A stretch of DNA of 50,528 nt, from positions 1-50,528 of the forward strand of contig JAGLOO010000059.1 in the NCBI GenBank assembly GCA_023138875.1, in the 5' to 3' direction. Below, one piece after another: positions 600 through 37,065 of the stretch. The stretch is from Bacteroidales bacterium (GTDB taxonomy: Bacteria > Bacteroidota > Bacteroidia > Bacteroidales > GCA-2748055). The notes under the pieces are model-generated. The model had not been told where the DNA came from. It ran no database searches and saw nothing but the letters and a program-made list of their open reading frames with translations. Position 1 is the first letter of the stretch. Every line of letters begins with the position of its first letter. A program made the position numbers and the translations under genes.

Positions 600-3455
600 T
601 TATTGGTTAAGCAATAGATCCAGAGCATATTCTGGAAGCATTTCATGATTCCCTGTGAAAATTATCAATTTGATACCCCCATATTCTTTTACCAGGCATA
701 GATCCCTGTCTGCAATTTTACCATCACTATGAACGGGCCTTCGGTATTCAAGGAGTTCCAGCTTTTCTGCATCAGAGACAAACTTTGACAGATCGGTTAC
801 ATGCAGTTCAGCCAGCAGTTTATTATAGAAATTGATTGAATGTGTGATTGGGACACTTCCCTGGATTCCATCATAAATGCCTGCAAATATGTTCAATTCA
901 GTACCTGAAAGTTTATCTGCCGGGAATTCCCAGTAAAAGGGGGACCTTTCTTTTGCCTTCTCAGTGTTTAGTTTTCCATTTTCAGAATCAGTGCAGTTCA
1001 GAATGTCATCTGCATATCCATTGTTCCTGATGCGGCTTTGATCGTACCACGCTGGCAGATCAGAAATTGCAGCCCAGGCTGAAAACTTCCTGATAGGGTG
1101 CTTTGATTTCATAAACATACACAGAGTCGCATATCCACCCCCACTAACGCCAATTACAAAAATCTGTGTAGTGTCAACATTTGCATTGGAGATGGCATAC
1201 GAAATAGCTTCATCAATGTCATTGATAACCAGATCACTGCAGCAAGCTTCAAGGGTATGATTGGGGCCCCTGAAATCAGGATGAATATAATTCAGGTCCT
1301 TCGTTTGACATAATTCAGATAGTGGGTCTTTCTGGGTATAATCTCCGCTCCAGGTATGCAAACTTACAATCAATGGTTTTGGTTCAGCTGATTTGGTATT
1401 ATAAAAATATGCTTTCTGGATATGGTTATCCAGGGGAGATTCTATTTCAATAATATCAAAGTCACCGCTCCATACAGCCTCACTTGCCCGGACAGTTCTG
1501 AACGGTACTGCAGGCAGCCCTTCCTTGTTGTACAGATTCGCATCATCCGGATTGTCGGCCCACCCATAGCGGACTGCCACAGGATCCTTAATTAGATCAT
1601 TGTATACATAAACCTGATTGTCTTTGATAAATGCCCTGGCCCATCTGAATGTTCCATCCGCCCCGGCAATGGTGAAGCCTTTAAGGTATCCATACCAGTC
1701 TTTTGCTGCAAGACCGGACCCCACATGGTCGAATGTCAGGATGGCATGCTTTCCGCTAATTTCCATTTTCCTGAATAGAGGGCCTGAGTATACCAGCTCT
1801 TTTCCATATGCTATTTTCATTGCTGCGAGGGCCAGTCTTTTACCGACTTCCAGTTTATTGGGCGGGTGTAGGTTTTCCGCTTCTCCAATATCAATGGCGA
1901 CGGCCATTCCGGTTGCGGGAAGATCAAGCGCCATGGCCTGGGCTTCTCTCAATTCCGCCCAGTGGCTTTCCCCTGGCTGCTTCCTGGGATGCATGTAATT
2001 GGGCAGTTGTACAAACAGGTAGGGAAGATCAGCCTTTCCCCAATGCTGACGCCAGTCGGTAATTAGCATGGGAAATAAATCACCATATCCGGTGGGACGG
2101 ATGGTATTTGCTTCTCCCTGGTACCAAATAAATCCTTTGATGGAGAGATTGTGAAGTGGGTGGATCATACCATTAAAAAGAAGGGACGGATTTCTATCAG
2201 GTCCAATGATATCGGGGAACTTCACCTGGAGTCCATCCGGACTGATCCGGTACCTCCAGGTATCTGCAAGCGGAATTTCAAAATCTCCTGACACGATCCT
2301 GAAGTACCGGGGCAAACTGTAAAATCCACGACCTCTCCCGGTATTTGAAATCCGGATAGCAATTACATTTTGATCTTCCCGTAGCAAGTCGGATGGAACA
2401 TGATAAATCCTGTTCGTATATTGGTTCATAGTTGTTTGACCAACCAGATGGCCATTGACCCAAGTCATGTCAGAGTCATCTATAGGTCCAAGTTCAAGGG
2501 TTATACCCCGATTTGCCACCTCTTCCGGGAGATCGAAATTATACCTGAACCAGAGTACCCCTTCTATACTCCGGAGATCTGTACCCTTCCATTGCCGGGG
2601 CAGTGCCACATGGCCCCAGCCGGTCATTGAAAGCTCCGGGTCAGCCCAGTAAGCACTATCTCCGACTAATCCGGGAGCAGTACCTGTATGCCGATCCAGT
2701 AATGCCTCAATTTCTCTCTTTTTTAATGCTGTTGCGTTTTCGGGATCAAAACTTTCCAGATCCCCGGCTATGTTTGCGAATTCATCCAGGGTATACAGGG
2801 CTTTCCCGCTTGTCCACATCTCTATATTGGTCCCGCCACAACTGCTGTTAACCAGTCCGATCGGGATATTCAATTCCTTGTGCAACTCTCTTCCAAAATA
2901 GTATCCTGCGGCAGAGAACTGCCGGATGGTTTCCGGATTGCATTCATTCCAATTTCCGTCAGGCAGATCCTCTGCAGGAGCGTATTGAACTGTACAGGGA
3001 ACCTGAAAAATCCTGATTTCGGGAAAATTGGCTTTATCACATTCTGTGAGACTGTCAGGCAACAGGCTTAGAGGCCATCCCATATTTGACTGCCCGGAAC
3101 AGATCCAGACATCCCCAAAAAGGATATTTTTGAGTGTGATGCGATTGGTCCCCTGAATAATTATTTCATAGGGTCCACCCGCCTTCATAGCAGGAAGTGT
3201 CAGCATCCATTTTCCGTTCCTGTCTGCACGGATTGAGCGCTCCGTGCTGTTGAATGTGACCGACACTTTCTCTCCTTTATCCGCCCAACCCCAGAGCCTG
3301 AATTCCTGCTCTCGCTGGATCACCATATTACTTCCCAGGATTGCCGGGAGCCTGACTTCAGCTGATAAACTCTGGATCGATAGGTTGAACAGGAATGTAA
3401 AGAATAAATATTTTCCGACAGGGGAATTCACCAGTACCTTGGATTCAGTTTGCAA
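600..3455 (-). CDS. Secreted sialate O-acetylesterase fused to C-terminal alpha/beta hydrolase
   Basis: This is a 951-residue exported protein with a hydrophobic leader at about residues 12-33. Residues 34-660 form an SGNH/GDS sialate O-acetylesterase. The block I nucleophile is in GQSNM (Ser123), WYQGEAN lies at 444-450, and the Asp/His dyad is in DIGEAENLH (Asp522, His530). A beta-sandwich insertion at about 260-400 is usual for the family. Residues 690-951 form a second hydrolase with nucleophile elbow GVSGGGYA (Ser771), Asp862 in GIYDG and His937 in GNHEM. Stand-alone SASA proteins are near 650 residues, so this is a real fusion. The frame opens with TTG at 3455; a GTG eight codons later (3431) is an alternative start. 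It is the last gene of the fucose cluster, 210 bp after the permease. A role removing acyl groups from host or algal glycans is inferred. Confidence 0.88.
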   Translation of the reverse strand: MQTESKVLVNSPVGKYLFFTFLFNLSIQSLSAEVRLPAILGSNMVIQREQEFRLWGWADKGEKVSVTFNSTERSIRADRNGKWMLTLPAMKAGGPYEIIIQGTNRITLKNILFGDVWICSGQSNMGWPLSLLPDSLTECDKANFPEIRIFQVPCTVQYAPAEDLPDGNWNECNPETIRQFSAAGYYFGRELHKELNIPIGLVNSSCGGTNIEMWTSGKALYTLDEFANIAGDLESFDPENATALKKREIEALLDRHTGTAPGLVGDSAYWADPELSMTGWGHVALPRQWKGTDLRSIEGVLWFRYNFDLPEEVANRGITLELGPIDDSDMTWVNGHLVGQTTMNQYTNRIYHVPSDLLREDQNVIAIRISNTGRGRGFYSLPRYFRIVSGDFEIPLADTWRYRISPDGLQVKFPDIIGPDRNPSLLFNGMIHPLHNLSIKGFIWYQGEANTIRPTGYGDLFPMLITDWRQHWGKADLPYLFVQLPNYMHPRKQPGESHWAELREAQAMALDLPATGMAVAIDIGEAENLHPPNKLEVGKRLALAAMKIAYGKELVYSGPLFRKMEISGKHAILTFDHVGSGLAAKDWYGYLKGFTIAGADGTFRWARAFIKDNQVYVYNDLIKDPVAVRYGWADNPDDANLYNKEGLPAVPFRTVRASEAVWSGDFDIIEIESPLDNHIQKAYFYNTKSAEPKPLIVSLHTWSGDYTQKDPLSELCQTKDLNYIHPDFRGPNHTLEACCSDLVINDIDEAISYAISNANVDTTQIFVIGVSGGGYATLCMFMKSKHPIRKFSAWAAISDLPAWYDQSRIRNNGYADDILNCTDSENGKLNTEKAKERSPFYWEFPADKLSGTELNIFAGIYDGIQGSVPITHSINFYNKLLAELHVTDLSKFVSDAEKLELLEYRRPVHSDGKIADRDLCLVKEYGGIKLIIFTGNHEMLPEYALDLLLNQ

Positions 3456-3487
3456 AAACCAAAAGTAATGAAATTAGCTTTATTCTC

Positions 3488-3616
3488 TTATAATTCATCA
3501 ACGATTCCCCCTGTCAGTCGCAGAATTGCATTGTGACTTTCAATCACACTGAAGATTGCGTTCTGGTACTGTAGGGCAGCATTCAGGTAGATCTGTTGTA
3601 CATCCCTGTTATCCAT
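3488..3616 (-). pseudogene. Possible TolC-like outer membrane factor C-terminal remnant
   Basis: The minus strand encodes 42 residues from an ATG at 3616 to a TAA at 3488, containing YLNAALQYQNAIFSVIESHN and then ILRLTGG. The pattern (helix with paired aromatic and Asn residues, then L.LTG) resembles the last helix of TolC-type efflux outer membrane proteins. Nothing upstream continues the homology, because the frame closes before the permease gene. It may be the stub of a deleted efflux gene, or chance. It sits in the 210-bp gap between the permease and the esterase genes. Confidence 0.35.
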
Positions 3617-3665
3617 CCGACAGCTGTCCGGTCCCGTTCAGATGAGGTTCTAACCGGGACTGAAT

Positions 3666-5003
3666 TCAGGATACCTTGGCTCTCCTGCTGGTATACAAAG
3701 CATAATACGCAATGAAAACAAAACATAACAGCGGTACCAGGTATGCCATATTTATGCCAGATGGTAGTTGAAATGTTGAAACTGCATTATGTCTGTCAAC
3801 TACTGTAGAAACCAAGCCCTCTAACTGGGTAATGATGGCACCTCCAACAATGGCCATAATCAGACCTGAAGTAGCAATTTTTGTATCTTCCCCCAGACCT
3901 TCAACAGAGAGTCCGAAAATGGTGGGGAACATCAGCGACATGCATCCTGAAATTCCTACCAGGGCGTATACACCTGCCTGTCCTCCTACAAAAACGACCA
4001 CCAGGATAAAAGCAATTGCCAGGAAACTCATAAATGCCAGCAATTTCCCCGGTTTTATGAATCTCATAAGTGCGGTACAGATAAATCGTGATGCGACAAA
4101 TAATATGAGAGATGCAATATAATAGTTGGCAGCAATCTGTTCAGCCGTTTTCCCTGCCGGCAGCATAATCTCTTCCAGCCTGAGTTCCTGCATTGCATAC
4201 CGTATTGTGAATGACCATATACCGATCTGCGCACCTACATAAAATAGTTGGGCAATGACTCCCATTACATAATTTTTATTATGAAGCAGGCGTTTCAGGG
4301 TGGGTCCGAGGTCAACTTTCCCTGATCTGTCACCGGTCCTCGGCATCTTAACAAAAAAGATCACGATCCAGAGAACCAGCAGCACGAAACCAATAGAAAC
4401 ATAGGTCATGGTTACTGCACTCAACTCACCCGTCTGTATGATCTTTAACTGCTCCGGATTCATGGAAGCTCTTTCAGCTGCTCCTGCCTTATTTAGCAAA
4501 GCCAGAATAAAGACCTGGCTCAGAAAAACTCCCATGATGGAACCGATGGGATTGAATGATTGAGCCAGGTTCAGTCGTCTGGTGGCAGTTTTCTCCGGAC
4601 CCATTGAGATGATATAAGGATTGGCCGCCGTCTCCAGGATCGAGAGGCCCCCAAAAAGAATCCAGAGTGCCCCGAGAAAATGAAAGTAACTCCCTGTATA
4701 TTTTGCAGGAAAAAAGAGGAAACAACCTATAATATAGAGGGCAAGTCCAAGTAGAATTCCTGATTTATAAGAGTATTTTTTTATATAGATAGCTGCCGGG
4801 AAAGCAAATATAAAGTAGCCAAATCCATATGCGGATATTTGAATCAGGGCGGTTCTTGAGTCAGACATGCTCATAATTCTCTTGAATGCCGCCAGCAGGG
4901 TGTCGGTCATATTGTTTGCAAGTCCCCACAAGAAAAACAAGGAAGTAATTAAGACAAATGGAATAATTATTCTCTGTGGTACAATTCTTTCTTTGCTTTT
5001 CAC
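3666..5003 (-). CDS. fucP: L-fucose:H+ symporter, MFS FucP family
   Basis: This is a 445-residue 12-TM major facilitator. The N-terminal FLWGLANNMTD (24-34) and ETAANPY (124-130) with following NLAQSFNPIGS are hallmarks of FucP. In E. coli FucP the protonation residues are Asp46 and Glu135; Asp34 and Glu124 occupy the same motif positions here. The gene follows the isomerase and lipoprotein genes on the same strand with a 41-bp gap. Together these genes import and isomerise L-fucose or a close stereoisomer. The start codon is GTG (5003). Related sugar specificities (glucose/galactose porters of the same family) cannot be excluded from sequence alone, but the neighbouring isomerase favours fucose. 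Confidence 0.88.
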   Translation of the reverse strand: MKSKERIVPQRIIIPFVLITSLFFLWGLANNMTDTLLAAFKRIMSMSDSRTALIQISAYGFGYFIFAFPAAIYIKKYSYKSGILLGLALYIIGCFLFFPAKYTGSYFHFLGALWILFGGLSILETAANPYIISMGPEKTATRRLNLAQSFNPIGSIMGVFLSQVFILALLNKAGAAERASMNPEQLKIIQTGELSAVTMTYVSIGFVLLVLWIVIFFVKMPRTGDRSGKVDLGPTLKRLLHNKNYVMGVIAQLFYVGAQIGIWSFTIRYAMQELRLEEIMLPAGKTAEQIAANYYIASLILFVASRFICTALMRFIKPGKLLAFMSFLAIAFILVVVFVGGQAGVYALVGISGCMSLMFPTIFGLSVEGLGEDTKIATSGLIMAIVGGAIITQLEGLVSTVVDRHNAVSTFQLPSGINMAYLVPLLCFVFIAYYALYTSRRAKVS

Positions 5004-5044
5004 GTCGCTATAATTAATGAATGTTATTTTTTTGTGTCAGGGTT

Positions 5045-6286
5045 TTAAAATGCATCCTCAATTTCCTTAAGGGATACTTTCAGAACCTCGATGGCGATCT
5101 TATCCAAAGATGATTCATCACCTTTAAAATGATAGGTTCGCTGAAGATGTGTATAAGAATCACCAGGATCAAGCGAGAGGGCAGGAGAGGAGGATTCCAG
5201 TTCATAAAATGGTCCCATCTGCGAACCATCTTCAAGCGGTCCGTCGTTGTACGAATTGAATGCGTCTCCTTTATAAGGATTCTCCTGCAATTCCCATGCA
5301 GAATTAACAAAGTCTGTATTGTTTTCCGGGAGCGGGCACTCGACTATTGTAAGAGCCTGGTTTTGTGAATCATAACTACCCATAAAACGCGCAGTCCTGA
5401 GGGGCGGAATCCCGATTTTCCCCCGGCTTTTTCCATCTGCCCTGAAAAACACTTTGTTGTCTGAAACCTTCAGCCTCTCGTCACTGATCTTTCCAAAATA
5501 GTCGTCATTGACTTCAGGTCCCAATTCACTGCTATCACCCTCTTTAACCGGAATAACAACCGTAACCTCCTGCGACGGAATCAGCATTCCAAGTATCCAG
5601 ATGGAAAGAAGACCACTCTCTTTTTCCCAATTTTTCTGTCCGGTGTTTATTATGGTATTTGAGGTTTCATATGCAACAACGGAACTGTTTTTGCTCGATA
5701 TATTGAGATATTCATCAATTTGATTTCCGGAAAGCAGGATCACATTCCGCAAAACCTCCAGATTGAATACTATACCTGAATAATTTTCCAGTGTCATCTC
5801 TTTTTTCAAGCTTGCCATGGTCTCATTGTGAGAGACCAGTTCAAATGGTTCGGTGTCGATAGGAGCAGGCACATACCAGTTGTCAAATACAAAATCAGTT
5901 CCTGCTTTAAAGTAAACAGAAAACTGTCCCCCTTCAGGCCCAATCCAGAATCTCTCTTCTCCCCCAATCGGATTAAAATGTTCAAGGGTTTCTCCGGATT
6001 CGATCAACTCGTAATTCATCCATCCAAAACTAAATCCATTTTCACCTTCACATGTAGAGGTCATTACACGACCCTGATATGCAGGAACGAGTGCTATTGC
6101 TGATTCGCCGTCCTTTAACTCGATAACATCCTGGTGCTTTCCTAAAAACTGACTGTCATAACCATAAGTACCTTTGTCTAATTCTTTCATATCTTCCTTA
6201 TTACTCCTGGTTCCTTTTTGATTGCATCCTGTGAATATAATACCAATGAACAGGAGGCTGATAATTTTAAAGATTATTGGTCTCAT
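5045..6286 (-). CDS. DUF6786-like lipoprotein of the fucose cluster
   Basis: This is a 413-residue lipoprotein. The leader ends in the lipobox IIFTG-C, making Cys21 the lipidated residue. The mature part begins with an aldose-epimerase-like opening (residues about 50-130: DVIELKDGESAIALVPAYQG, then NPIGGEERFWIGPEGGQFS). This arrangement resembles the DUF6786 family, which has a galactose-mutarotase-like look. A role as a periplasmic or surface mutarotase or sugar-binding protein is inferred from that resemblance and from its place between isomerase (11 bp upstream) and permease. Catalytic residues could not be assigned. The family name is from recall of the motif pattern. Confidence 0.7.
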   Translation of the reverse strand: MRPIIFKIISLLFIGIIFTGCNQKGTRSNKEDMKELDKGTYGYDSQFLGKHQDVIELKDGESAIALVPAYQGRVMTSTCEGENGFSFGWMNYELIESGETLEHFNPIGGEERFWIGPEGGQFSVYFKAGTDFVFDNWYVPAPIDTEPFELVSHNETMASLKKEMTLENYSGIVFNLEVLRNVILLSGNQIDEYLNISSKNSSVVAYETSNTIINTGQKNWEKESGLLSIWILGMLIPSQEVTVVIPVKEGDSSELGPEVNDDYFGKISDERLKVSDNKVFFRADGKSRGKIGIPPLRTARFMGSYDSQNQALTIVECPLPENNTDFVNSAWELQENPYKGDAFNSYNDGPLEDGSQMGPFYELESSSPALSLDPGDSYTHLQRTYHFKGDESSLDKIAIEVLKVSLKEIEDAF

Positions 6287-6297
6287 AACTCGTTTTT

Positions 6298-8085
6298 TTA
6301 TTTAAAACCGTATAATGGTCCGTAAGCTGCGCAGGCCCTGTAGTCTGCTCCCTCTTTCTCTTCTCCGAAGGCGGCCCAGGCTGCAGGACGGAAAATTTTG
6401 TCTGAAGGGACATTATGCATGCATACAGGGATCCTGAGTATGGAAGCAAGCGTGATCAGGTCTGCACCAATATGTCCAAAACTGATTGCTCCGTGGTTGG
6501 CCCCCCAGTTGGCCATGACACTGTAAACATCGCTAAAGGCTCCGGCTCCTGTAACTCTTGGTGCAAACCAGGTTGTGGGCCAGGTTGGATTCGTTCTCTC
6601 ATCCAGAATTTTATGAATATCATCGGGCAATTCAACGGTCCATCCTTCTGCAATCTGCAGAACCGGTCCGGTTCCTTTTACCAGGTTTATGCGTGACATT
6701 GTAACCGGCATTTCGCCTGTGGTTTTAAACTGTGATGAGTAACCACCTCCGCGGAAGTATTCCCTGACAGCCTGCGGCCACAGGGTATTATCAAGGCATC
6801 TTTTTACATCATCCTCTTTAATCTTCCAGAAAGGTTTCATCACAGGATTGCCTTTGTCATCCCGTTGTTGACCGGTAGCATCCAGAGTTGTAGAGCCAGA
6901 GTTTATCAGATGGATGATCCCATTGGCTGCTTTGCCCGATAATGCTTTACCGGTAACCCGCTTTACAGCTTCCGGACTCCAATATGTCCTCACATCCGAA
7001 AATATCTGGGCGGTGTTGGATACAAGGTGCCCAAAAAGCATCGACACCCCGTTCAGACTGTCATTTTCTGTTGCAAAAATGAAAGCCTGCCTGATCCCGT
7101 TCCAGTCGAATGAGGAATTTAATATTGCTTCTGTAAAATCACCATTCGGTTGATAATCTGTCCACTGACGTTGCCCCTGGAATCCACCCATAATAGCATT
7201 CCTGCCAAGTCCTTCTTCACGGTATCCCATTTCAGTAAGCACGGGATTACCTATCATTATATCCCTGCAGATCAATGTCATCTTTACAACTGTCTCCCAT
7301 TCCAGTTTTTTCCTGTCATCATCAGCACGGTTTTCGGGACTGTTATGATCTTCTCCTTCTTTACAGTTGGATTCTGTCCAGATCATTGCCTTATTATATT
7401 CCTCCTTATCATAGATATCTTCGTCGATACGGCGCAGAACTTCAGTAGAGTCGATAAATTCGGTGCGTATACCGAGGTAATCCTGGAAAAAGTTGGGATC
7501 AACCATAGAGCCGGCAATTCCCATGGAACTATATCCTATGGATGCATATGACTTTCCTTTCATCAGTGCCACGGCCATTCCGGCCTTGACAAATCGAATG
7601 ATCTTCTCCTTTACGTCCTCTGGAATTTCAGTATCTCCTGCATCCTGTACATCCCGGCCATATATGCCGAATGACGGGAGTCCTTTTTGTGCATATCCTG
7701 CAAGAGCAGCAGCCAGGTATACTGCTCCCGGCCTTTCTGTCCCGTTAAAGCCCCAGATGGCTTTCGGAATCAGGGGATCCGTATCCATCACCTCGGTGCC
7801 ATAACACCAGCAGGGGGTCACGGTCAGGGAGACACCCACTCCTTCATGCTGAAACTTGTCAGCACACATGGCAGCTTCCGCTACACCACCGATGCATGTA
7901 TCTGCAATCACGCATGTCACTTTTTCCCCACTGGGAAAACGCACATTATCTTCCACAAATTTCGCGGCCGATCTGGCCATATTCATCACCTGCTCCTCAA
8001 GTGATTCTCGAACTCCCCGCTCGCGTCCGTCTATCACTGGACGAATTCCTACTTTGGGCAATTGCCCTATTAATCTGTTTGACAT
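6298..8085 (-). CDS. fucI: L-fucose isomerase
   Basis: This 595-residue protein converts L-fucose to L-fuculose (and D-arabinose to D-ribulose) in the cytoplasm using a divalent metal, usually Mn2+. The length matches E. coli FucI (591). The N-terminal [20 protein letters not shown], the central [10 protein letters not shown] and [10 protein letters not shown], and FSDVRTYWS are typical. Glu340 and Asp364 fall where E. coli has the metal ligands Glu337 and Asp361; a C-terminal [13 protein letters not shown] segment supplies the third ligand region. The ATG at 8085 lies 58 bp after the LacI regulator, and the stop is 11 bp before the lipoprotein gene, consistent with one transcript. No fuculokinase or fuculose-phosphate aldolase is present in the window, so the downstream steps must be encoded elsewhere. 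Confidence 0.95.
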
Positions 8086-8143
8086 ATTTGATGAATTAGT
8101 TTGTTATTCGTTTCTACATATTATTGCTTTTCCATTGACCGGT

Positions 8144-9166
8144 TCAACAAGACTCCCTCACAATCAGTTTTCCTGGCAATGATATCCGTTCTGGTTTACT
8201 TTCGGTCTTCCCCTCAATTTTCCGGGATAAAATATTGATGGCTTTTGCACACATCAATTCAATGGGTTGTTCCACACATGTAATTCCTGGTTTTGCCACC
8301 TGAAAAGCTTCGGGATTATCAAAACAAACAATTCCGATATCTTCTGGTATGGTAAGACCGACTTTATCAAAATATTTCAAACTGCTAATTCCAAGTTTGT
8401 TATTTGCAAAAAAGAAGGCGTCACAACCATTTTCCAGGGCCTGCTTCAGCATTGCCTCAAGCCGGGTATCTAATTGATCAAAATCAACCTCAAAAATAAA
8501 ATCCTCTACCGGGTAGTTTAAGCCTGAATCCTTAAGAGCTGTTGTATACCCATGCATCCTATCCTTGATATTTGACAGATGTAAATCATTGGCAAAGGCA
8601 GCAATCTTTCCATATCCTTTTTTTATTAAGAGACTGGTAAGCTGATAGCTTCCCAGATAATTATCAGAAACGACCGCATCCTCATCTACTCCTTCACAAT
8701 AACGGTCAATAAAAACAAAGGGTATGGACTGCTCCTGGAGAGATAGTAAGAAGCTTTCACTTTGAAATACGGGAACGATTATCATACCATCCACCTGGCG
8801 TGAGGCAAACATATTAACCAAATTTTCAAGTTTTTCGGGATTTTCATCCGAGCTTCCGAACATCACCTGGTATTCCAGTTTTGCTGCTTCATTTTCAATA
8901 TACCTGGCCATTTTGCCGAAAAACGGATTTGAGATATCTGCAACAAGCAAACCAATTATTCCTGATTTACCAGTCCGCAGGCCTCTTGCAAGCTGATTTG
9001 GCCGGTACCCAAGTGCTTTTGCTGTTTCAATTACCTTGGCCGCCAGTTCATCACTGATCCTGCGTTCTTTACTCTTCCCCGATAGAACAATTGAGACAAG
9101 CCCTATTGAAACATTTAGCTTATTAGCTATGTCTATCAGCTTTACCTGTTTCTGTGGCATCGACAT
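8144..9166 (-). CDS. LacI-family transcriptional regulator of the fucose cluster
   Basis: This is a LacI/GalR-type repressor of about 340 residues. The N-terminal helix-turn-helix (VKLIDIANKLNVSIGLVSIV) is followed by the hinge-region consensus GYRPNQLARGLR and a periplasmic-binding-like sugar domain starting IIGLLVADISNPFF. The longest frame opens at a TTG (9187), but that codon lies inside the -7 box. The ATG at 9166 (MSMPQKQ) or 9160 is a better start. It is the first gene of the cluster. A LacI-type palindrome, AAACGTTT, overlaps the promoter, so autoregulation and control of isomerase, lipoprotein, permease and esterase is likely. Fucose, fuculose or a phosphate derivative is the inferred effector. 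Confidence 0.9.
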   Translation of the reverse strand: MSMPQKQVKLIDIANKLNVSIGLVSIVLSGKSKERRISDELAAKVIETAKALGYRPNQLARGLRTGKSGIIGLLVADISNPFFGKMARYIENEAAKLEYQVMFGSSDENPEKLENLVNMFASRQVDGMIIVPVFQSESFLLSLQEQSIPFVFIDRYCEGVDEDAVVSDNYLGSYQLTSLLIKKGYGKIAAFANDLHLSNIKDRMHGYTTALKDSGLNYPVEDFIFEVDFDQLDTRLEAMLKQALENGCDAFFFANNKLGISSLKYFDKVGLTIPEDIGIVCFDNPEAFQVAKPGITCVEQPIELMCAKAINILSRKIEGKTESKPERISLPGKLIVRESC

Positions 9167-9184
9167 CCATTTGAATTGGCTCAG

Positions 9185-9220
9185 CAAATATAGAACTTTA
9201 TATTATTTGCTCAAACGTTT
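9185..9220 (-). promoter_or_regulatory. Promoter and LacI-type operator of the fucose cluster
   Basis: On the minus strand, TTTG (9212-9215) is separated by exactly 19 nt from TATATTTG (9185-9192). This matches the Bacteroidota sigma-ABfr consensus TTTG-N19-TAnnTTTG. The 8-bp palindrome AAACGTTT at 9213-9220 has the central CG of LacI-family operators and overlaps the -33 element, an ideal place for repression. Transcription would start near 9178, leaving a leader of only about 12 nt before the ATG at 9166. Confidence 0.75.
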
Positions 9221-22173: not shown

Positions 22174-22920
22174 TTAAGCTAAAATCAAATCAACTCCCGC
22201 TTTTTTCAATTCATTTTGATACATAGAACTTAGATCGTTGTTGGTAGCAATGTGATGAATGTCTGCCGGAAAGCAAATATTGGTAAGCTCTGTTTTTCCG
22301 AATTTACTTGAATCGGAAATAATAAAAACATCCTGTGCTTTTTGAATGATATAACTTGAAATTTCGGCCCTGAAAAGATCACACAGTGTAAATCCGGAAT
22401 CGGTAGTGTATCCATCAATTCCAATAAAAGCTTTATCAATGTTTATCTGATCAATACAGGTTTTGGTCATTTTCCCCACCAGGGTTTCACTGTCGTGCTG
22501 GTATATACCACCAAGAATTATAATATTGGCTTGTTCATTTTTTCTGAATTGCCGGGCGATGTAAACATTGGTGGTAATAATGGTAACTTTTTTGATCTTC
22601 AGAAGTTCACGTGCCAGAAGTACATTTACCGAGCCTGATTCAATCAGGATTGTTTCCCCTTCATTTACACAGGAAGAAACCTTTTTGGCAATCCTGAGTT
22701 TCTTTTCATAATTAACTCCCAGCCGGTTCACAAGATCGTCTGCATCTTTTAATACTGCACCGCCATGAACGCGCTTTAAAAGACCTTCCCCCTCCAGGAA
22801 ATTCAGATCCTGCCGGATGGTAACCGATGAAACACTCAGTATTTCAGAAAGAGTATTTACAGAGGTCTTGTCGTTTTTTCCCAGGATCTCAAGGATCCTG
22901 TTTTGTCTTTCATTTAACAT
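22174..22920 (-). CDS. DeoR-family transcriptional regulator
   Basis: This 248-residue regulator has the DeoR N-terminal winged helix (NRILEILGKNDKTSVNTLSE, VSSVTIRQDLNFLEGEGLLKRVHGGAV). The C-terminal sensor domain with DEFECT-like sequences (TILIESGSVNVLLARELL, KAFIGIDGYTTDSGFTL) belongs to the phosphosugar isomerase fold, so a phosphorylated sugar is the likely effector. It is the last gene of a four-gene operon (activase, glycyl radical enzyme, ROK kinase, DeoR), with 3 bp separating it from the kinase. That context makes the kinase product the best effector candidate. Confidence 0.93.
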   Translation of the reverse strand: MLNERQNRILEILGKNDKTSVNTLSEILSVSSVTIRQDLNFLEGEGLLKRVHGGAVLKDADDLVNRLGVNYEKKLRIAKKVSSCVNEGETILIESGSVNVLLARELLKIKKVTIITTNVYIARQFRKNEQANIIILGGIYQHDSETLVGKMTKTCIDQINIDKAFIGIDGYTTDSGFTLCDLFRAEISSYIIQKAQDVFIISDSSKFGKTELTNICFPADIHHIATNNDLSSMYQNELKKAGVDLILA

Positions 22921-22923
22921 AAT

Positions 22924-23883
22924 TTACTCCAGCGTTAAAGCAGCCGCCCCGATAACTCCGGCATCGGCAGCGATATTTGAAACCGTTATTTCAATGGGGT
23001 CAAAAATCATATCGCGGGCTAATTCGTAAAAAGTCGATTTTATTTTGTTCAGATAGGATTCTCCCCAATTGGTCAGTCCTCCCCCCAAAACAATGAGTGG
23101 TGGATTCAAAGCCTGAAAAATGTTATAAATTCCTAAACCTACATAATAGCCACAGTCAGATATGACCTCTTTGGACACAGGATCATCCATGTCAAGGCCT
23201 TGTTTCAGAACCTGTCCACTCATTCTTGACATATTAAAATCTGGCGGCAGATTTAGCCGGCTTTTTTTACCCTCCTTTAATTTTTGTTCAAAAAGATAGG
23301 GCAGTGCCATACCACATGCACATGCCATTAGACAGCCACGGTTGCCACAGGTGCAGGTCAGCTCACTGTCTGGTTCCACAATCATGTGACCAAATTCTCC
23401 TGCAGTTCCTGTCATACCACGATAAAGCTTTTTGTTTATAATAATACCGGCCCCAATTCCTGTACTTATGGTCAGAAAAACCATATCATCAAATCCCTGT
23501 CCGGCACCAAACTTATATTCACCAAAGGCCTGGGCATTAGCATCGTTGTCCAGGATTACAGGTATTTTAAAATGGGATTGGACAGCTTCACGAAGCGGAT
23601 AATTTTTAAATCCTTTCAGGTTGGAAGTGGTTAAAATTACTCCATCACGAAAACGGATGTGGCCTGCACAACCCATTCCGATTCCTGGAAGGTCAGATTC
23701 CTGCAGGTCATTTCTTCTAAGTATCTCTTTGATATTTTCAGCTACCATTTTAATCCGGCCTTCTTCGTTTTTATCAACATGGTCACAGCTATAAATTTTA
23801 TCCAGGATTTGTCCTTTTTCGTCAACCAGGGCTATGGAACACTTGGTGCCACCTATATCGACACCGCATAAAGTTTTGCTCAT
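22924..23883 (-). CDS. ROK-family sugar kinase
   Basis: This 319-residue cytoplasmic kinase has the N-terminal ATP site CGVDIGGTKCSIALVDEKG, the sugar-binding LDNDANAQAFGEYKFGAG with its conserved Asp, GHMIVEPDSELTCTCGNRGC with the ROK zinc-binding Cys cluster and His, and LNPPLIVLGGGL near the end. There is no DNA-binding domain, so it is an enzyme rather than a NagC/XylR-type repressor. It sits 8 bp after the glycyl radical enzyme and 3 bp before the DeoR gene. It probably phosphorylates the sugar or sugar alcohol on which the radical enzyme acts. Specificity within ROK kinases (glucose, fructose, GlcNAc, ManNAc, anhydro sugars) cannot be read from motifs. Confidence 0.92.
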   Translation of the reverse strand: MSKTLCGVDIGGTKCSIALVDEKGQILDKIYSCDHVDKNEEGRIKMVAENIKEILRRNDLQESDLPGIGMGCAGHIRFRDGVILTTSNLKGFKNYPLREAVQSHFKIPVILDNDANAQAFGEYKFGAGQGFDDMVFLTISTGIGAGIIINKKLYRGMTGTAGEFGHMIVEPDSELTCTCGNRGCLMACACGMALPYLFEQKLKEGKKSRLNLPPDFNMSRMSGQVLKQGLDMDDPVSKEVISDCGYYVGLGIYNIFQALNPPLIVLGGGLTNWGESYLNKIKSTFYELARDMIFDPIEITVSNIAADAGVIGAAALTLE

Positions 23884-23891
23884 GGGATTAA

Positions 23892-26309
23892 TTAGCTTAG
23901 TGAGTGTTCGGTTCTTGAAATAATATCATCCTGAGTATCGGGTGCCAATGTTGTGAAAAATGCGGAATATCCGGCTACCCTGACTATGAGATCCCTGTAT
24001 TTTTCCGGGTTCTTTTTAGCGGCAAGCAGTGTTTCTTTTGAAACGATATTGTATTGCACATGCCACCCTTTCAAATCTTCAAAAAAAGTGCGTATGATCG
24101 AAATCAATTTTTGTTTGTCGGAATCTTTCTGAATCGTGGCAGGGGATAATTTCTGGTTCAACAGCACCCCACCCATGATTTTTTCCGTAGGTAACTTTGA
24201 GACTGATTTAAACGCCGCAGTCGGTCCCAGCATATCTGTCCCCGAAGATGGCGAACTTCCCTCGGCAACCGGAGTAAACGCTTTTCTGCCGTCGGGTGTG
24301 GCCGGAACAACAGCTCCGCTGGGAACATTGGCTGAAATACTGGAGGTTCCAGCATAATATTTACATCCGATAGGGCCACGGTTGTACCGGGTGGTATGAT
24401 ATTTCTCAAGTTCGTCGATAAATTCCATGTAGGCATCTCTTAAAAGGAGATCCACATAATCATCGTCATTCCCGTATTTCGGCACAAAATTCAATAATAG
24501 TTGCCGGATTTTTTCACCATCCTCTCCTTCGAAGTTGTTTTCAATGGCAATTAAAAGCTGTTCTTTTGTTATTTTTTCTTCTTCGAAAACCAGTTTTTTA
24601 ATGGCTGCCAGTGAATTCCCCAAATTCGCAATTCCAACCTGCAAACCAGAAATAAAATCGTATTTCGAACCACCTTCCTTAATGGTTTTACCCCGGGGAA
24701 TGCAACTGTCTACAAAAGCAGAACAGAGGATGTCCGGAACAATCTCTTCGAGGGCAGTATCAACAGCAGTATCAATTTCAACCGTTTTCCGGGTATAATA
24801 TTTTATCTGATGTTGCCACGCCTTAAATACATCTTCAAATGAATTAAATTCGGCAAAATTCCCTGTGCCTTTTTTAAAGACTATACCTGACTGCTTGTCA
24901 AGTCCGTCATATAACGAGGCCAGGAAAACCCGCATCAGGTTCAGAAAACTCATTCCGGTACAACGGTAACCCCATTTCCCCGGTACAGCAATTTCAATAC
25001 ATCCGATTGCAGAGTAGCTATAAGCATCTTCCGGTTCAACCCCAATTTTAATTAATCCGGGAATTACGATTTCATCGTTGTTAAAGGAGGGCATGCCAAA
25101 TCCCTTTTCAATGATCCGCGTGCACTCCAACATGAAATCATTGTTTATCTTCTTATGGAACCGTACTGAAAGGTTGGGTTGGGTAAGTTTCATTTTTCCA
25201 ACCGAATCGAGAATAAGAAAACTCAAATCATTTACAGCATCCAGCCCGTCAGTTGTTTGTCCGCCTATGGTAACGTTCTGATACAGCGGTCCGCCGGCAG
25301 AGAAACGGGTATGTGACCACGGACGAATTTTATTAATAGAAAGCAATTTGATCCAGGTATTTTCTAACAGCTCTGATGTAAAATCCTCAGAAATATATCC
25401 TGTGATTTTATCATTTTGATAAAAAGGGAAGAGGTACTGATCCATTCTTCCCAAGGAGACTGAATGGCCATTACTTTCGATTTGAAGAACAAGCTGCACA
25501 AAATAAGTGAGCTGCAGTGCCTGATAAAAGGTTTGAGGGGGCTTTTCTGCAATGACTTCACAATGGTTAGCGATCAACAACAGTTCCTTTTCTCTTTGTT
25601 TGTCCTGTTCTTTTTTACTGAGAGAAAGAGCTAAAGTCCTGTATCTCCGAATAAATACTTGGAACGCTACAATGGAAATAGTTAGCGCCGTATAAAAATG
25701 GTCTTTTTTTACTCCTTCCTGTTCGAATCTTTTAACCTGTTGATGATATTGTTTAATTTCCTGAAGATATCCACCTAGCCCTATCGATAATATTTTGTAA
25801 AAATCAACTGCAATATGAGCATCTCCGGAGGTGAGGTTGCCAGTAGCTTTAATAATGGCTGAATCCTGCAGGTTTCGTAATTCCTGCGACATGATTGCCC
25901 TGCCACGATCCCAAAGTACTTTCCCTTTCCACCATTTTGCAATTTCAAGCAGTTCCTTTTTATGTTCAACTGTTATAAAAAAAGCATCTCCAGGGCGCTT
26001 ATCCAGTTCATCCATTTCCCGGGGTAGCCAGTCAACAGCATATTCAGGAAAAATAGGGGCCGCCCTATGCTGCGATGATTGGTTTCCCACAATGAGTTCA
26101 CCATCATCAATAAAAACGGTCATTTCATTAAGGGTTTTTTCAAGTGCCAGTGCCCGTTTTATTATGACTGGTTGATCATCATTCTCCTGATAAATTTGGG
26201 TATAAAACTTTGCCCTTTCTGTACAAACCGATGGTTTTGTGCTTAAAACCTTTTCACGCAGAGCCCATATTCTTTCCGTTACCGTTGTCGATTTCTTTTC
26301 AGTGATCAT
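23892..26309 (-). CDS. Glycyl radical enzyme (pyruvate formate-lyase-like; PflD/YbiW clade suspected)
   Basis: From the ATG at 26309, 1 bp after the activase stop, this encodes 805 residues (a longer frame from 26351 overlaps the activase). The thiyl-radical Cys lies in AIGCIEIAVPGKW (Cys437 from this start) with the usual following Glu two residues later. The radical-bearing Gly is in RVAGYSAFF (Gly780, 26 residues from the end). A PFL-like N-terminal domain (WALREKVLSTKPSVCTERA) is present. The Cys-x-Glu pair marks eliminases/C-O lyases rather than pyruvate formate-lyase, which has adjacent Cys-Cys. E. coli YbiW and PflD, as I recall, open anhydrohexitol 6-phosphates to 1-deoxyfructose 6-phosphate. 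The neighbouring sugar kinase and the PflC-like activase fit such a role. Other GRE lyases are possible. Confidence 0.85.
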   Translation of the reverse strand: MITEKKSTTVTERIWALREKVLSTKPSVCTERAKFYTQIYQENDDQPVIIKRALALEKTLNEMTVFIDDGELIVGNQSSQHRAAPIFPEYAVDWLPREMDELDKRPGDAFFITVEHKKELLEIAKWWKGKVLWDRGRAIMSQELRNLQDSAIIKATGNLTSGDAHIAVDFYKILSIGLGGYLQEIKQYHQQVKRFEQEGVKKDHFYTALTISIVAFQVFIRRYRTLALSLSKKEQDKQREKELLLIANHCEVIAEKPPQTFYQALQLTYFVQLVLQIESNGHSVSLGRMDQYLFPFYQNDKITGYISEDFTSELLENTWIKLLSINKIRPWSHTRFSAGGPLYQNVTIGGQTTDGLDAVNDLSFLILDSVGKMKLTQPNLSVRFHKKINNDFMLECTRIIEKGFGMPSFNNDEIVIPGLIKIGVEPEDAYSYSAIGCIEIAVPGKWGYRCTGMSFLNLMRVFLASLYDGLDKQSGIVFKKGTGNFAEFNSFEDVFKAWQHQIKYYTRKTVEIDTAVDTALEEIVPDILCSAFVDSCIPRGKTIKEGGSKYDFISGLQVGIANLGNSLAAIKKLVFEEEKITKEQLLIAIENNFEGEDGEKIRQLLLNFVPKYGNDDDYVDLLLRDAYMEFIDELEKYHTTRYNRGPIGCKYYAGTSSISANVPSGAVVPATPDGRKAFTPVAEGSSPSSGTDMLGPTAAFKSVSKLPTEKIMGGVLLNQKLSPATIQKDSDKQKLISIIRTFFEDLKGWHVQYNIVSKETLLAAKKNPEKYRDLIVRVAGYSAFFTTLAPDTQDDIISRTEHSLS

Positions 26310-26310
26310 C

Positions 26311-27201
26311 TCAACCCCCAATTTTAGTTTGTAATCCTTTTGATTGTGCAAACTGAATATATGGTTCTAACTCTGAATCCTGAACCTGCTTTTTATGACC
26401 AAAAGTGTAGTCCATGCCCAGCGATTTGTATTTTTCAACTCCGAATGTATGATAGGGCAGAAAATGAATCTCATTGACATTTTTTAATGAAGAGACAAAT
26501 TCAATCATCTGTTTTATTTCCTTTTCAGAATGATTAAAACCGGGAATCACCGGAATGCGAACGATTACCTGTGCATCAGCATCTATGAGTTTAATCAGGT
26601 TGTTCAATACCAATTCGGAGTCTCCCTGTACAAAGGATTTGAATTTATCCTGATCAATATGTTTCAAATCTACCAGGAAAGTACCGACCAAACCTATACA
26701 TCTCGCCACACTTTTCCAGTTCACATGAAGTGATGTTTCCATGTTTACGTTGATGTTCCTGCCCTTAAGTTTCTGTAGCAAGGTTATAAATTCTTCGCCC
26801 TGAGAAAGCGGCTCTCCCCCTGAAAGGGTTACTCCTCCGTTGTTCCGGTAAAAAGGGGAGTCTTTCTCTATTTCAGTTAGAAGTTCATCAACACTTTTGG
26901 ATTCTCCGGATATGGTTAATGCTTTCGACGCGCAAATATCCCTTAATTTTTCAGGTCCAGTTATAATTTCACGGTCAATCTGAATCCCATTATTATTGAT
27001 CCGGGTAATGGCTCTATTATCAGCCTTTATGCAATCCCCAAACCCCCTGCAACTCTTTTTATCGTACATAACGCTGTAACCGAAAGACTGACTTTCCGGA
27101 TTACTGCACCACTGGCAACGAAGCGGACATCCTTTATAAAAAATAATGGTTCGGATACCGTCGCCATCGTGAGTAGAAAATCGCTGAATATTAAAGATCA
27201 T
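26311..27201 (-). CDS. Glycyl radical enzyme activase (radical SAM), PflC-like
   Basis: This 296-residue radical SAM protein installs the glycyl radical on the enzyme encoded just downstream. MIFNIQRFSTHDGDGIRT opens the protein as in E. coli PflC. The SAM-cluster motif is CPLRCQWCSNPE (CxxxCxxC), followed later by GGVTLSGGEPLSQ (GGE motif) and VDLKHID. The auxiliary ferredoxin-like insert (about 47-100) is degenerate: only three of the usual eight cluster cysteines appear (SCRGFGDC, DICASKAL). Similar erosion occurs in PflC. The gene is first in the operon; its stop and the next start are separated by 1 bp with a G-rich stretch before the ATG. The TAnnTTTG box lies about 32 bp upstream of the ATG. 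Confidence 0.92.
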   Translation of the reverse strand: MIFNIQRFSTHDGDGIRTIIFYKGCPLRCQWCSNPESQSFGYSVMYDKKSCRGFGDCIKADNRAITRINNNGIQIDREIITGPEKLRDICASKALTISGESKSVDELLTEIEKDSPFYRNNGGVTLSGGEPLSQGEEFITLLQKLKGRNINVNMETSLHVNWKSVARCIGLVGTFLVDLKHIDQDKFKSFVQGDSELVLNNLIKLIDADAQVIVRIPVIPGFNHSEKEIKQMIEFVSSLKNVNEIHFLPYHTFGVEKYKSLGMDYTFGHKKQVQDSELEPYIQFAQSKGLQTKIGG

Positions 27202-27232: not shown

Positions 27233-27264
27233 CAAATATAATAAGATTTCGAATGAAAGTGAAA
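27233..27264 (-). promoter_or_regulatory. Promoter of the glycyl radical enzyme operon
   Basis: On the minus strand TATATTTG (27233-27240) matches TAnnTTTG, with TTTC, one base off TTTG, 20 nt upstream (27261-27264). The activase ATG is 32 bp downstream. A plus-strand TAAATTTG box at 27362-27369 serves the opposite direction, so the 205-bp gap is a divergent promoter region. Confidence 0.55.
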
Positions 27265-27406
27265 TGTCTTTCGTATAAAATACCGTGGGCAATCAGATTT
27301 ATACTTCCTTTTTCAGAAGTACAGCAATTCCCTGTTGAAGAAATGAGATACAAATAATTGGTAAATTTGCAGTATCAGCGCCAATGTATAACCATTATTT
27401 CATAGG

Positions 27407-35916: not shown

Positions 35917-37065
35917 TCATTTCTTTTTCAAGAAGATAAAGTCACCCCCTTCATCCCCAACATTCCTTATTTCTCCGTATTGTGGAATCGCATCGCTGTT
36001 ATTGATCACTGCAATCCTGAAACTACTAAAGAGTTGCTCGGATGATAAATAAGCATCCTCATTCTCAATTAATCGTTCAAGCAGATATCGGGTGAAAGAA
36101 CTTCGATCCGGCACTTCGGTTAAAGTCCCGCTTGTCATCGCCTTGCGACTGGATAATTCATAAAGCACCTCATATGCCCTATCCTGTTTTGGGAAACCAG
36201 ATCTTGTTTTGAAGATTGAACCTGCAAAACATGCATCTGTAATCAAAAGAGTATGTTTGGAATCAATAGTCTTAAGGTAATCCACCAGCGTACTGTTGCG
36301 AAACCAGTTTGCCGTGCTTGTCAAGTTTGCGTTGGTTGGCAGCCAATAACCAACATTTGCCTTCTCATCCCACGTTCCATGGCCTGCATAGAATATAAGT
36401 ACATTATCATTAGGAGTAACCTTACTTGCCAGATCATCCAATGCGTACACTATATCATTTCTTTTGGCATTTGTAAGAAGTATGATATCGCTGCTATGGA
36501 ATGTATATTGAGATATCAGTGTATTGTAAATCCTTTTCGCATCTTTGATCGGATTCTCCAGATTATGCAGGCTGGGATCACTATACTTGTCTATCCCTAT
36601 AATCAAAGCATAATACTTTGCCTCCTCTAAGATTCTATCGGCAAGTGTTACAACAGGAGGGATGTACTCTATTGTAACGAATTGTTCCTGCAGGTTGTCG
36701 ATATTATCAACAGCCACAAGGCGTACCTTGTTCTCACCAGGAGAAAGTTTAAGTCTTGATGAAAAAATCCCTGTTTCATTGATAGTCCTGATATCAGAGT
36801 TGACAGAAACAAACTTGACACCACTTTCATCATTAACTTCCCCAATCAAATCGATTTCTTCAGCAGCAGTTCGATAAACCATGTCTCCTGAAATATCGGG
36901 AGTCATTAGCTTTATAGTGGGAGGCTGAGTATCCGGAAGATTGTTTATCAGAATCCTGACCTTGTTACTTTCAACCTCCTGGGAGAAGGAATAACTATAT
37001 CCCCAGATCATCGCAATCATGACCAGGACGAACACCCTTGTACTATAACCAGTTTTTTTCATCAT
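35917..37065 (-). CDS. Secreted caspase-family (C14) cysteine protease
   Basis: This 382-residue protein has an export signal (about 8-29, VFVLVMIAMIWGYSYSFSQ). An Ig-like domain (about 45-140) contains IDLIGEVNDESGVKFVSVNS and LSPGENKVRLVAVD. The C14 caspase domain (about 150-382) begins YYALIIGIDKYSDPSLHNLE, has catalytic His229 in YAGHGTWDE and Cys279 in ITDACFAGS, so the dyad is intact. Most bacterial caspases studied act inside the cell in defence or death; this one is exported, so it should act in the periplasm or at the surface. The genes before (6 bp) and after (13 bp) encode exported proteins too. The target is unknown. Confidence 0.88.
   Translation of the reverse strand: MMKKTGYSTRVFVLVMIAMIWGYSYSFSQEVESNKVRILINNLPDTQPPTIKLMTPDISGDMVYRTAAEEIDLIGEVNDESGVKFVSVNSDIRTINETGIFSSRLKLSPGENKVRLVAVDNIDNLQEQFVTIEYIPPVVTLADRILEEAKYYALIIGIDKYSDPSLHNLENPIKDAKRIYNTLISQYTFHSSDIILLTNAKRNDIVYALDDLASKVTPNDNVLIFYAGHGTWDEKANVGYWLPTNANLTSTANWFRNSTLVDYLKTIDSKHTLLITDACFAGSIFKTRSGFPKQDRAYEVLYELSSRKAMTSGTLTEVPDRSSFTRYLLERLIENEDAYLSSEQLFSSFRIAVINNSDAIPQYGEIRNVGDEGGDFIFLKKK

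What the first reader, a model, noticed from the sequence alone, without database searches (positions are those of the whole stretch)
22174..27201. Candidate anhydro-sugar radical pathway: activase, glycyl radical enzyme, ROK kinase, DeoR
Seen: a tight operon (gaps of 1, 8 and 3 bp) with a CxE-type glycyl radical enzyme, an activase starting MIFNIQRFSTHDG like E. coli PflC, a ROK sugar kinase and a DeoR regulator. Known, as I recall: YbiW and PflD of E. coli cleave 1,5-anhydroglucitol and 1,5-anhydromannitol 6-phosphate to 1-deoxyfructose 6-phosphate. Inferred: here the kinase makes the phosphorylated anhydrohexitol (or a related sugar phosphate) and the radical enzyme opens it. In E. coli no dedicated ROK kinase is fused into such an operon, so this would be a self-contained version. 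The aldolase is not in the window.
Basis: partly seen in the sequence, partly recalled or inferred. Interest (0 to 1): 0.75.

Follow-up and report, generated by a model that had tools for sequence, protein, structure and literature searches.

The report
Kinase-fed version of anhydroglucitol pathway
A four-gene bacterial operon appears to phosphorylate and then split the sugar 1,5-anhydroglucitol with a radical enzyme, using its own dedicated kinase in place of the sugar-import system that E. coli uses for that step.

Summary
In detail: a tight minus-strand operon of activase, glycyl radical enzyme (GRE), ROK kinase and DeoR regulator. The GRE is a YbiW relative (57% identical to E. coli YbiW; about 1020 bits to solved YbiW, next enzyme 640), not PflD or a diol dehydratase. 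Three lines not in the finding tie it to the E. coli system. (1) The DeoR protein resembles YciT, which a published ChIP-exo study places upstream of ybiUVWY and fsaA. (2) The palindrome CTTTCATTCGAAAG stands in the E. coli ybiY-fsaA gap and, exactly or nearly, upstream of 21 of 35 kinase-type operons. (3) All 44 GRE-linked ROKs aligned carry Met where ROK kinases carry a sugar-contacting Glu, against 0 of 38 unlinked ROKs; this suits a substrate without a 1-OH. Kinase and GRE occur together in the genomes sampled. Verdict: new variant of a known pathway with a predicted new kinase, 1,5-anhydroglucitol 6-kinase. All function is inferred from sequence.

The parts
26311..27201 (-). Radical SAM glycyl radical enzyme activase, YbiY-like
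   Evidence: TIGR02494 324 bits, above cut-off 174; a homologue directly precedes the GRE in 73 cases among the related loci
23892..26309 (-). Glycyl radical enzyme, YbiW clade; predicted 1,5-anhydroglucitol-6-phosphate ring-opening C-O lyase
   Evidence: 57% identity to E. coli YbiW, 39% to PflD; 1020 bits to YbiW structures 8yjn/8id7, 1022 to 6xs4, next 640; inside the 80-row YbiW clade
22924..23883 (-). ROK-family sugar kinase with Met in place of the Glu of CxCGxxGCxE; predicted 1,5-anhydroglucitol 6-kinase
   Evidence: PF00480 227.7 bits; Met in 44 of 44 GRE-linked ROKs against 0 of 38 unlinked; co-occurrence with the GRE
22174..22920 (-). DeoR-family regulator related to E. coli YciT
   Evidence: best NCBIfam model is YciT, 226 bits, below its cut-off of 450; 45.7% over 208 aa to YciT, 23-31% to AgaR, YgbI, CsqR and part of SrlR
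27246..27259 (-). Predicted operator CTTTCATTCGAAAT (1 mismatch to CTTTCATTCGAAAG); near edge 44 bp upstream of the activase start codon
   Evidence: with up to 2 mismatches to CTTTCATWYGAAAG such a site is upstream of 21 of 35 kinase-type activase genes (dinucleotide shuffles: mean 0.65, largest 3 of 35) and, without mismatch, in the E. coli ybiY-fsaA gap
27268..27281 (-). Second, weaker operator-like site (ATTTTATACGAAAG, 2 mismatches), 22 bp from the first
   Evidence: two sites 22 bp apart are also seen in L008, L018, L030 and L038

Best explanation
The operon is a PTS-independent version of the E. coli anhydroglucitol pathway. 1,5-anhydroglucitol (AG) enters unphosphorylated by a transporter not identified here. 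The ROK kinase phosphorylates O6 with ATP to give AG6P; its Glu-to-Met change removes the side chain that would contact the missing anomeric hydroxyl. The YbiW-type glycyl radical enzyme, activated by its radical SAM partner, opens the ring of AG6P to 1-deoxyfructose 6-phosphate (DF6P). The YciT-like DeoR protein controls the operon through the palindrome in front of it, probably sensing a sugar phosphate of the pathway. DF6P must then be used by an enzyme that in this genome is not a recognisable FSA. Shown by sequence: gene content, relatedness, co-occurrence, the Met signature, the shared operator. Inferred: every substrate and reaction, transport, the effector, and the step after DF6P.
For: GRE in the YbiW clade: YbiW 1020 bits, glycerol dehydratase 640, PflD 518; tree; 241 positions conserved in at least 79 of 80 clade members, 150 of them shared with PflD; YbiW and the window share GKWGYRCTGMSF where glycerol dehydratase has GWHDSAFF. 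YbiW acts on AG6P according to review PMC12441222, passages read. Kinase-GRE link: of 198 genomes of the order, 3 have the GRE (at least 1500 bits, next 539) and the same 3 have the kinase (at least 558 bits, next 159), adjacent on one contig; of 395 of the phylum only this genome has the GRE at E up to 1e-200, and the next kinase is at 180 bits. Met signature: 42 of 42 plus 2 of 2, against 36 Glu, 1 Thr, 1 Gln in 38 unlinked ROKs. That Glu is listed among the ManNAc-coordinating residues of human NanK, and the ROK motif is given as CxCGxxGCx(E/D) (PMC5458393, passages). Regulator: YciT peaks upstream of ybiUVWY and fsaA; ybiV, ybiY and fsaA change on yciT deletion (PMC8464067, passages); shared palindrome. 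Of loci L052-L082, 30 of 31 carry FsaA divergently beside the activase and none has this ROK.
Against: No TAL_FSA protein in this genome nor in 10 other of the 33 non-proteobacterial genome handles searched. No GldA match (no positive control). No linked transporter. The Met has one origin in the tree (44 linked rows, 42 of them different, on one side of a branch, support 89), so it counts as one event kept, not 44. Which atom the Glu touches is recalled; the ROK glucokinase structure papers were not held. The DeoR scores below the curated YciT cut-off. 5 of 25 kinase-type loci with a DeoR gene lack the palindrome, and 9 of 232 unrelated upstream stretches have one. The GRE tree is a FastTree with long-branch warnings. 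The E. coli function rests on a review; the primary paper was not readable.
Confidence: 0.75

Rival explanations
1. The operon acts on a different anhydro- or 1-deoxy-hexitol (1,5-anhydromannitol, 1,5-anhydrogalactitol or similar): kinase and GRE work in the same way, on another isomer.
For: 57% identity to YbiW does not fix the stereochemistry; the missing FSA leaves room for another product; the Met signature only says that the reducing end differs.
Against: It groups with YbiW and not PflD, the anhydromannitol enzyme; regulator and operator match the ybiW-fsaA system.
Confidence: 0.15
2. The kinase phosphorylates an ordinary hexose and is only a neighbour; the GRE receives AG6P made as a by-product by promiscuous hexokinases, so the operon is a repair system for a toxic side product.
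For: AG6P is described as toxic in human cells (PMC12441222, start of abstract and passages); the best general model for the kinase is ROK glucokinase, 230 bits, below its cut-off of 260.
Against: Co-occurrence and a Met at a position that is Glu in 36 of 38 unlinked ROKs do not suit a glucokinase; the gammaproteobacterial YbiW loci lack exactly this gene.
Confidence: 0.07
3. The GRE is a diol dehydratase or another known GRE (glycerol, propanediol, choline, hydroxyproline, isethionate) and the kinase serves a different route.
For: All match the same Pfam domains, and NCBIfam names the subfamily formate C-acetyltransferase/glycerol dehydratase.
Against: The equivalog models listed are missed by wide margins (HypD 558 against a cut-off of 1100, CutC 496 against 1050, HpsG 586 against 1000); 380 bits separate YbiW from the next solved enzyme.
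Confidence: 0.03

Closest known systems
E. coli YbiW-YbiY-FsaA anhydroglucitol pathway (with YciT)
   Same: Related GRE (57%), activase adjacent, YciT-like DeoR regulator, the same 14-bp palindrome in front
   Different: E. coli phosphorylates AG by the PTS (PMC12441222) and has fsaA next door; here there is a ROK kinase gene and no FSA in the genome
E. coli PflD-PflC-FsaB-GldA-Frw cluster (1,5-anhydromannitol 6-phosphate)
   Same: Same enzyme family and reaction type
   Different: 39% identity, PTS genes in the cluster, different conserved stretches
ROK glucokinases (for example 3vgk, 2qm1, 3vov)
   Same: ROK domain, DxGxT, ExGH and zinc cysteines
   Different: Met replaces the Glu of CxCGxxGCxE; below the TIGR00744 cut-off; the unlinked ROKs listed are 26-35% identical
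Listeria ROK kinase 4htl (deposited as beta-glucoside kinase)
   Same: Also lacks that Glu: Asn172 at the position (PMC5458393). Its substrates have a blocked 1-OH (recalled)
   Different: Residue is Asn, zinc site not seen, substrates are beta-glucosides (recalled)

Membership tests
YbiW-type GRE | Thiyl cysteine with Cys-x-Glu and glycyl loop RVxGYxAxF | tested here: met
   GCIE and RVAGYSAFF
YbiW-type GRE | Closer to YbiW than to GREs of other known reactions | tested here: met
   1020 against 640 bits; in the YbiW clade, support 99
YbiW-type GRE | Stretches conserved in the YbiW clade | tested here: met
   GKWGYRCTGMSF, ESNGHSVS and TSGDAH shared with YbiW. That they line the substrate site is inferred; the YbiW complex was not examined
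YbiW-type GRE | Ring-opening of AG6P | not testable with these tools
   needs an assay
ROK family | ROK domain, DxGxT, catalytic Asp, ExGH | tested here: met
   PF00480 227.7 bits; motifs
ROK family | CxCGxxGCx(E/D) | tested here: not met
   Cysteines present, last position Met in 44 of 44 linked copies. It is described as a ROK-domain protein of a divergent branch
ROK glucokinase (TIGR00744) | Score over 260.35 | tested here: not met
   230.2 bits
YciT-type DeoR regulator | Curated model NF040887 over 450 bits | tested here: not met
   226.2 bits, still the best model
YciT-type DeoR regulator | Closer to YciT than to other E. coli DeoR paralogues | tested here: met
   45.7% against 23-31% for the four compared
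E. coli-type anhydroglycolysis | FSA aldolase for DF6P | tested here: not met
   no PF00923 match in the genome; 10 of 14 control genomes positive
E. coli-type anhydroglycolysis | GldA-type hydroxyacetone reductase | tested here: inconclusive
   no match, but no positive control was run

The most novel reading that the evidence does not exclude
A branch of bacteria (Bacteroidota, Spirochaetota, Planctomycetota, Bacillota) runs a PTS-free and mostly FSA-free anhydroglucitol catabolism with a new kinase, 1,5-anhydroglucitol 6-kinase, recognisable by GCxM, and a still unknown enzyme for 1-deoxyfructose 6-phosphate, under a YciT-type switch whose operator has been kept across phyla.
Probability: 0.45. 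Interest if true: 0.65.

Novelty: new variant of a known kind. Interest (0 to 1): 0.52.

Why it matters
The anhydroglucitol pathway is described from E. coli, where the PTS does the phosphorylation. This predicts how bacteria that import the sugar unphosphorylated enter it, gives a one-residue signature (GCxM) for finding the kinase, and gives the E. coli regulator YciT, published as an osmolarity regulator with an 'uncharacterized pathway' among its targets, a concrete pathway. A kinase that takes 1,5-anhydroglucitol and not glucose would be useful for measuring this clinical marker (my inference). The missing aldolase opens a testable question.

Tried and rejected
I first guessed that 830-aa and 386/384-aa neighbours in L004 were a GH31 glucan lyase and anhydrofructose reductases, which would have completed the route from starch. 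Pfam shows DNA gyrase A and TPR proteins, so this was dropped. GH31 in this genome: two adjacent partial matches in one open frame of 596 aa; not pursued as a lyase.

Aldolase: no PF00923 in the genome. Of 38 genome handles, 27 have a match: all 5 gammaproteobacterial ones and 22 of the 33 others (G176 and G200, the genome of L005, show the same match and look like one genome). I took 24 stretches from 20 of those 22 (not G199, nor G200 again; for some genomes not every match). An FsaA homologue over 100 bits in an open frame of 225-275 aa is found in 3 of the 20 (G221, G211, G225); in the others FsaA scores 66 bits or less, or nothing. The long protein in G176 stands beside a KduI/IolB protein and a TPP enzyme, probably an inositol cluster; G209 is the only other with the IolB-like neighbour. 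In G221 one FSA lies near a piece of another GRE, not followed. Two PF01791 proteins of this genome read by eye as deoxyribose-phosphate aldolases. FsaA and FsaB have no homologue (phmmer, E up to 1e-4) among the ORFs of the kinase-type loci; GldA, GatY, GatZ, FbaA, FbaB and YbiV have none in any of the loci.

Transporter: ABC importer genes lie near the GRE in some Spirochaetota loci and a GntP permease in L007; none is linked here. The operator by window scan alone is not significant (1 found, 0.75 expected at up to 2 mismatches); the case rests on position and conservation. The tree label 'FSA_gamma' was given by locus number and includes L051, not shown to be gammaproteobacterial. L045 was left out of the trees and counts because its GRE was hidden by a longer antisense ORF. 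The structure-prediction tools were not used.
Full report
Observation. The GRE has GCIE and RVAGYSAFF.

Which GRE. Against all solved structures the GRE scores 1020-1022 bits with YbiW (8yjn, 8id7) and with an entry named Formate C-acetyltransferase (6xs4); then 640 with glycerol dehydratase (1r8w), 557 with 9rco, 543 with diol dehydratase and 518 with PflD. Identity to E. coli YbiW is 57% and to PflD 39%. The NCBIfam equivalog models listed for other reactions are all below their cut-offs. In a FastTree of 85 rows rooted on PflD the window protein falls in an 80-row clade with YbiW (support 99; long-branch warnings concern the outer rows). 241 positions are the same in at least 79 of 80 clade members, 150 of these also in PflD. 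A review (PMC12441222, passages read) states that E. coli YbiW and PflD cleave AG6P and AM6P to 1-deoxyfructose 6-phosphate after phosphorylation by the PTS; the primary paper (Ma et al., its reference 82) was not held (looked up under a DOI from memory).

Neighbourhoods. 80 loci were fetched with the GRE as query (154 relatives were found, the best 80 kept). In 41 a ROK gene of one homologous cluster lies near, in 37 directly after the GRE on the same strand; in L033 and L035 it is on the other strand, in L048 six ORFs upstream, in L012 one small ORF further. These loci come from Bacteroidota, Spirochaetota, Planctomycetota (one) and Bacillota (three). Of the 31 loci L052-L082, 30 carry an FsaA homologue beside the activase in divergent orientation, the exception being the short contig L054, and none has this ROK. 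So kinase and PTS look like alternatives for the same step (inference).

Co-occurrence. In 198 genomes of the order, GRE matches of at least 1500 bits occur in 3 and the kinase at 558 bits or more in the same 3, on the same contig next to each other; the next GRE is at 539 and the next kinase at 159 bits. In 395 genomes of the phylum only this genome has the GRE at E up to 1e-200, and the next kinase is at 180 bits. The pair is rare but tight. The three genomes are of one order, two of one genus, so these are not independent events.

The Met signature. ROK kinases carry CxCGxxGCx(E/D); the Glu is among the residues listed as needed to coordinate ManNAc in human NanK (PMC5458393, passages). In the window kinase the motif reads CTCGNRGCLM. 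All 42 rows (window plus 41 loci; recounted) have Met, as do the two orthologues. L028 and L029 are identical, as are L005 and L132, so 42 of the 44 differ. Of 38 unlinked ROKs taken from the list (mostly its top, the rest chosen by hand further down), 36 have Glu, 1 Thr, 1 Gln, 0 Met. In this genome three paralogues could be aligned there and have Glu; five did not align in that stretch. The linked ROKs form one side of a branch (support 89), so the change probably arose once and was kept, including in Clostridial copies only 35-37% identical to the window's. That this Glu contacts the 1-OH is recalled; in the structurally related MurK an Asp recognises the C1 hydroxyl (PMC10465942, section 8, part 1). 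One ROK in PMC5458393 with another residue there (Asn172, 4htl) is deposited as a beta-glucoside kinase, whose substrates also lack a free 1-OH (recalled).

The regulator. The DeoR protein is 45.7% identical to E. coli YciT over 208 aa, and 23-31% to AgaR, YgbI, CsqR and part of SrlR. DeoR genes next to ybiW in the Enterobacteriaceae loci are 73-81% identical to YciT. In E. coli K-12, YciT ChIP-exo peaks lie upstream of ybiUVWY and fsaA, and ybiV, ybiY and fsaA change expression on yciT deletion; the authors proposed an osmolarity role and called the pathway uncharacterized (PMC8464067, passages). The palindrome CTTTCATTCGAAAG stands in the E. coli ybiY-fsaA gap without mismatch. Allowing 2 mismatches to CTTTCATWYGAAAG, it stands upstream of the activase in 21 of 35 kinase-type loci with enough upstream sequence and in 26 of 31 loci numbered L050 or above. 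Controls: mean 0.65, largest 3, of 35 in 20 rounds of dinucleotide shuffles, and 9 of 232 upstream stretches of other genes. Among kinase-type loci it is in 20 of 25 with a DeoR gene near and in 1 of 10 without; that one contig (L038) ends 761 bp past the GRE. Sites without a visible DeoR gene also occur in L006, L031, L060, L068, L070 and L072. In the window it is at 27246-27259 with 1 mismatch. The consensus was read off the kinase-type upstream regions, so part of their excess is by construction; E. coli and the loci from L050 on were not used to make it.

What is missing. No TAL_FSA protein in the genome. Of 33 non-proteobacterial genome handles, 22 have some TAL_FSA protein and 11 none; of 20 genomes whose match was looked at, 3 have a clear FsaA homologue. 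So an FSA is present in some kinase-type genomes and not in most. No match to GldA (no positive control). No plausible transporter among 32 of 33 window ORFs of 150 aa or more. An assembly gap (completeness 99.64%) cannot be excluded.

Literature. Searches for 'glycyl radical enzyme' with 'anhydroglucitol' (0 papers), 'anhydroglycolysis', 'glycyl radical' with 'YbiW' (3 papers, one relevant), and 'anhydroglucitol kinase' among six terms (0 occurrences in the 25 papers listed of 49) found no report of this kinase in the held library. Subscription papers are not held, so a mention in the primary paper is possible.

Conclusion. A new variant of a known pathway: YbiW-type anhydroglucitol breakdown fed by a dedicated kinase. 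The strongest new points are the Met signature, the tight pairing, and the regulator with an operator shared across phyla.

Noticed in passing
E. coli K-12 NC_000913.3, ybiY-fsaA gap (L085:6012-6143) and yciT (L138:4598-5347): A perfect palindrome CTTTCGAATGAAAG lies in the ybiY-fsaA gap; YciT-like genes sit next to ybiW in other Enterobacteriaceae. YciT may be first of all the anhydroglucitol-pathway regulator.
   Followed up: partly
window 26311-27201 and activases of related loci: The 70-residue insert counted after the radical SAM motif has 3 cysteines (3 in 28 of 40 activases of loci numbered below L050, one of the 40 being L002 of the second GRE) against 6 in YbiY; an auxiliary iron-sulfur site may be reduced in this branch.
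   Followed up: no
G000:C78:47315-49675 (L002): A second GRE (33% identity) with its own activase; matches of 31-39% identity occur in all 67 of 198 genomes of the order that have any match at E up to 1e-100.
   Followed up: no
whole genome G000: No TAL_FSA protein at all, so no recognisable transaldolase, although a congener (G007) has one. Either a gap or a pentose route without transaldolase.
   Followed up: no
L024, L025, L027, L028, L029, L032, L034, L036: A Bacteroidota subgroup with activase-GRE-ROK but no DeoR seen beside it and no operator palindrome, as if regulator and site were lost together. The L027 and L032 contigs end within 1.6 kb after the GRE, so there the DeoR could be cut off.
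   Followed up: partly
L154 (G221:C48:33000-39500): In the Bacillota genome of L039 an FsaA homologue lies near a piece of another YbiW-like GRE (215 bits in a frame of 329 aa), some 20 kb from the kinase-linked one if C48 is the contig of L039 (both are 212,062 bases long).
   Followed up: no
window 600-9187: SASA esterase-like protein, MFS transporter, DUF6786 protein, L-fucose isomerase and a LacI-type regulator in a row; an unrelated sugar cluster.
   Followed up: no
window 35917-37065: Protein with a caspase domain (Peptidase_C14) and a glucodextranase B domain.
   Followed up: no
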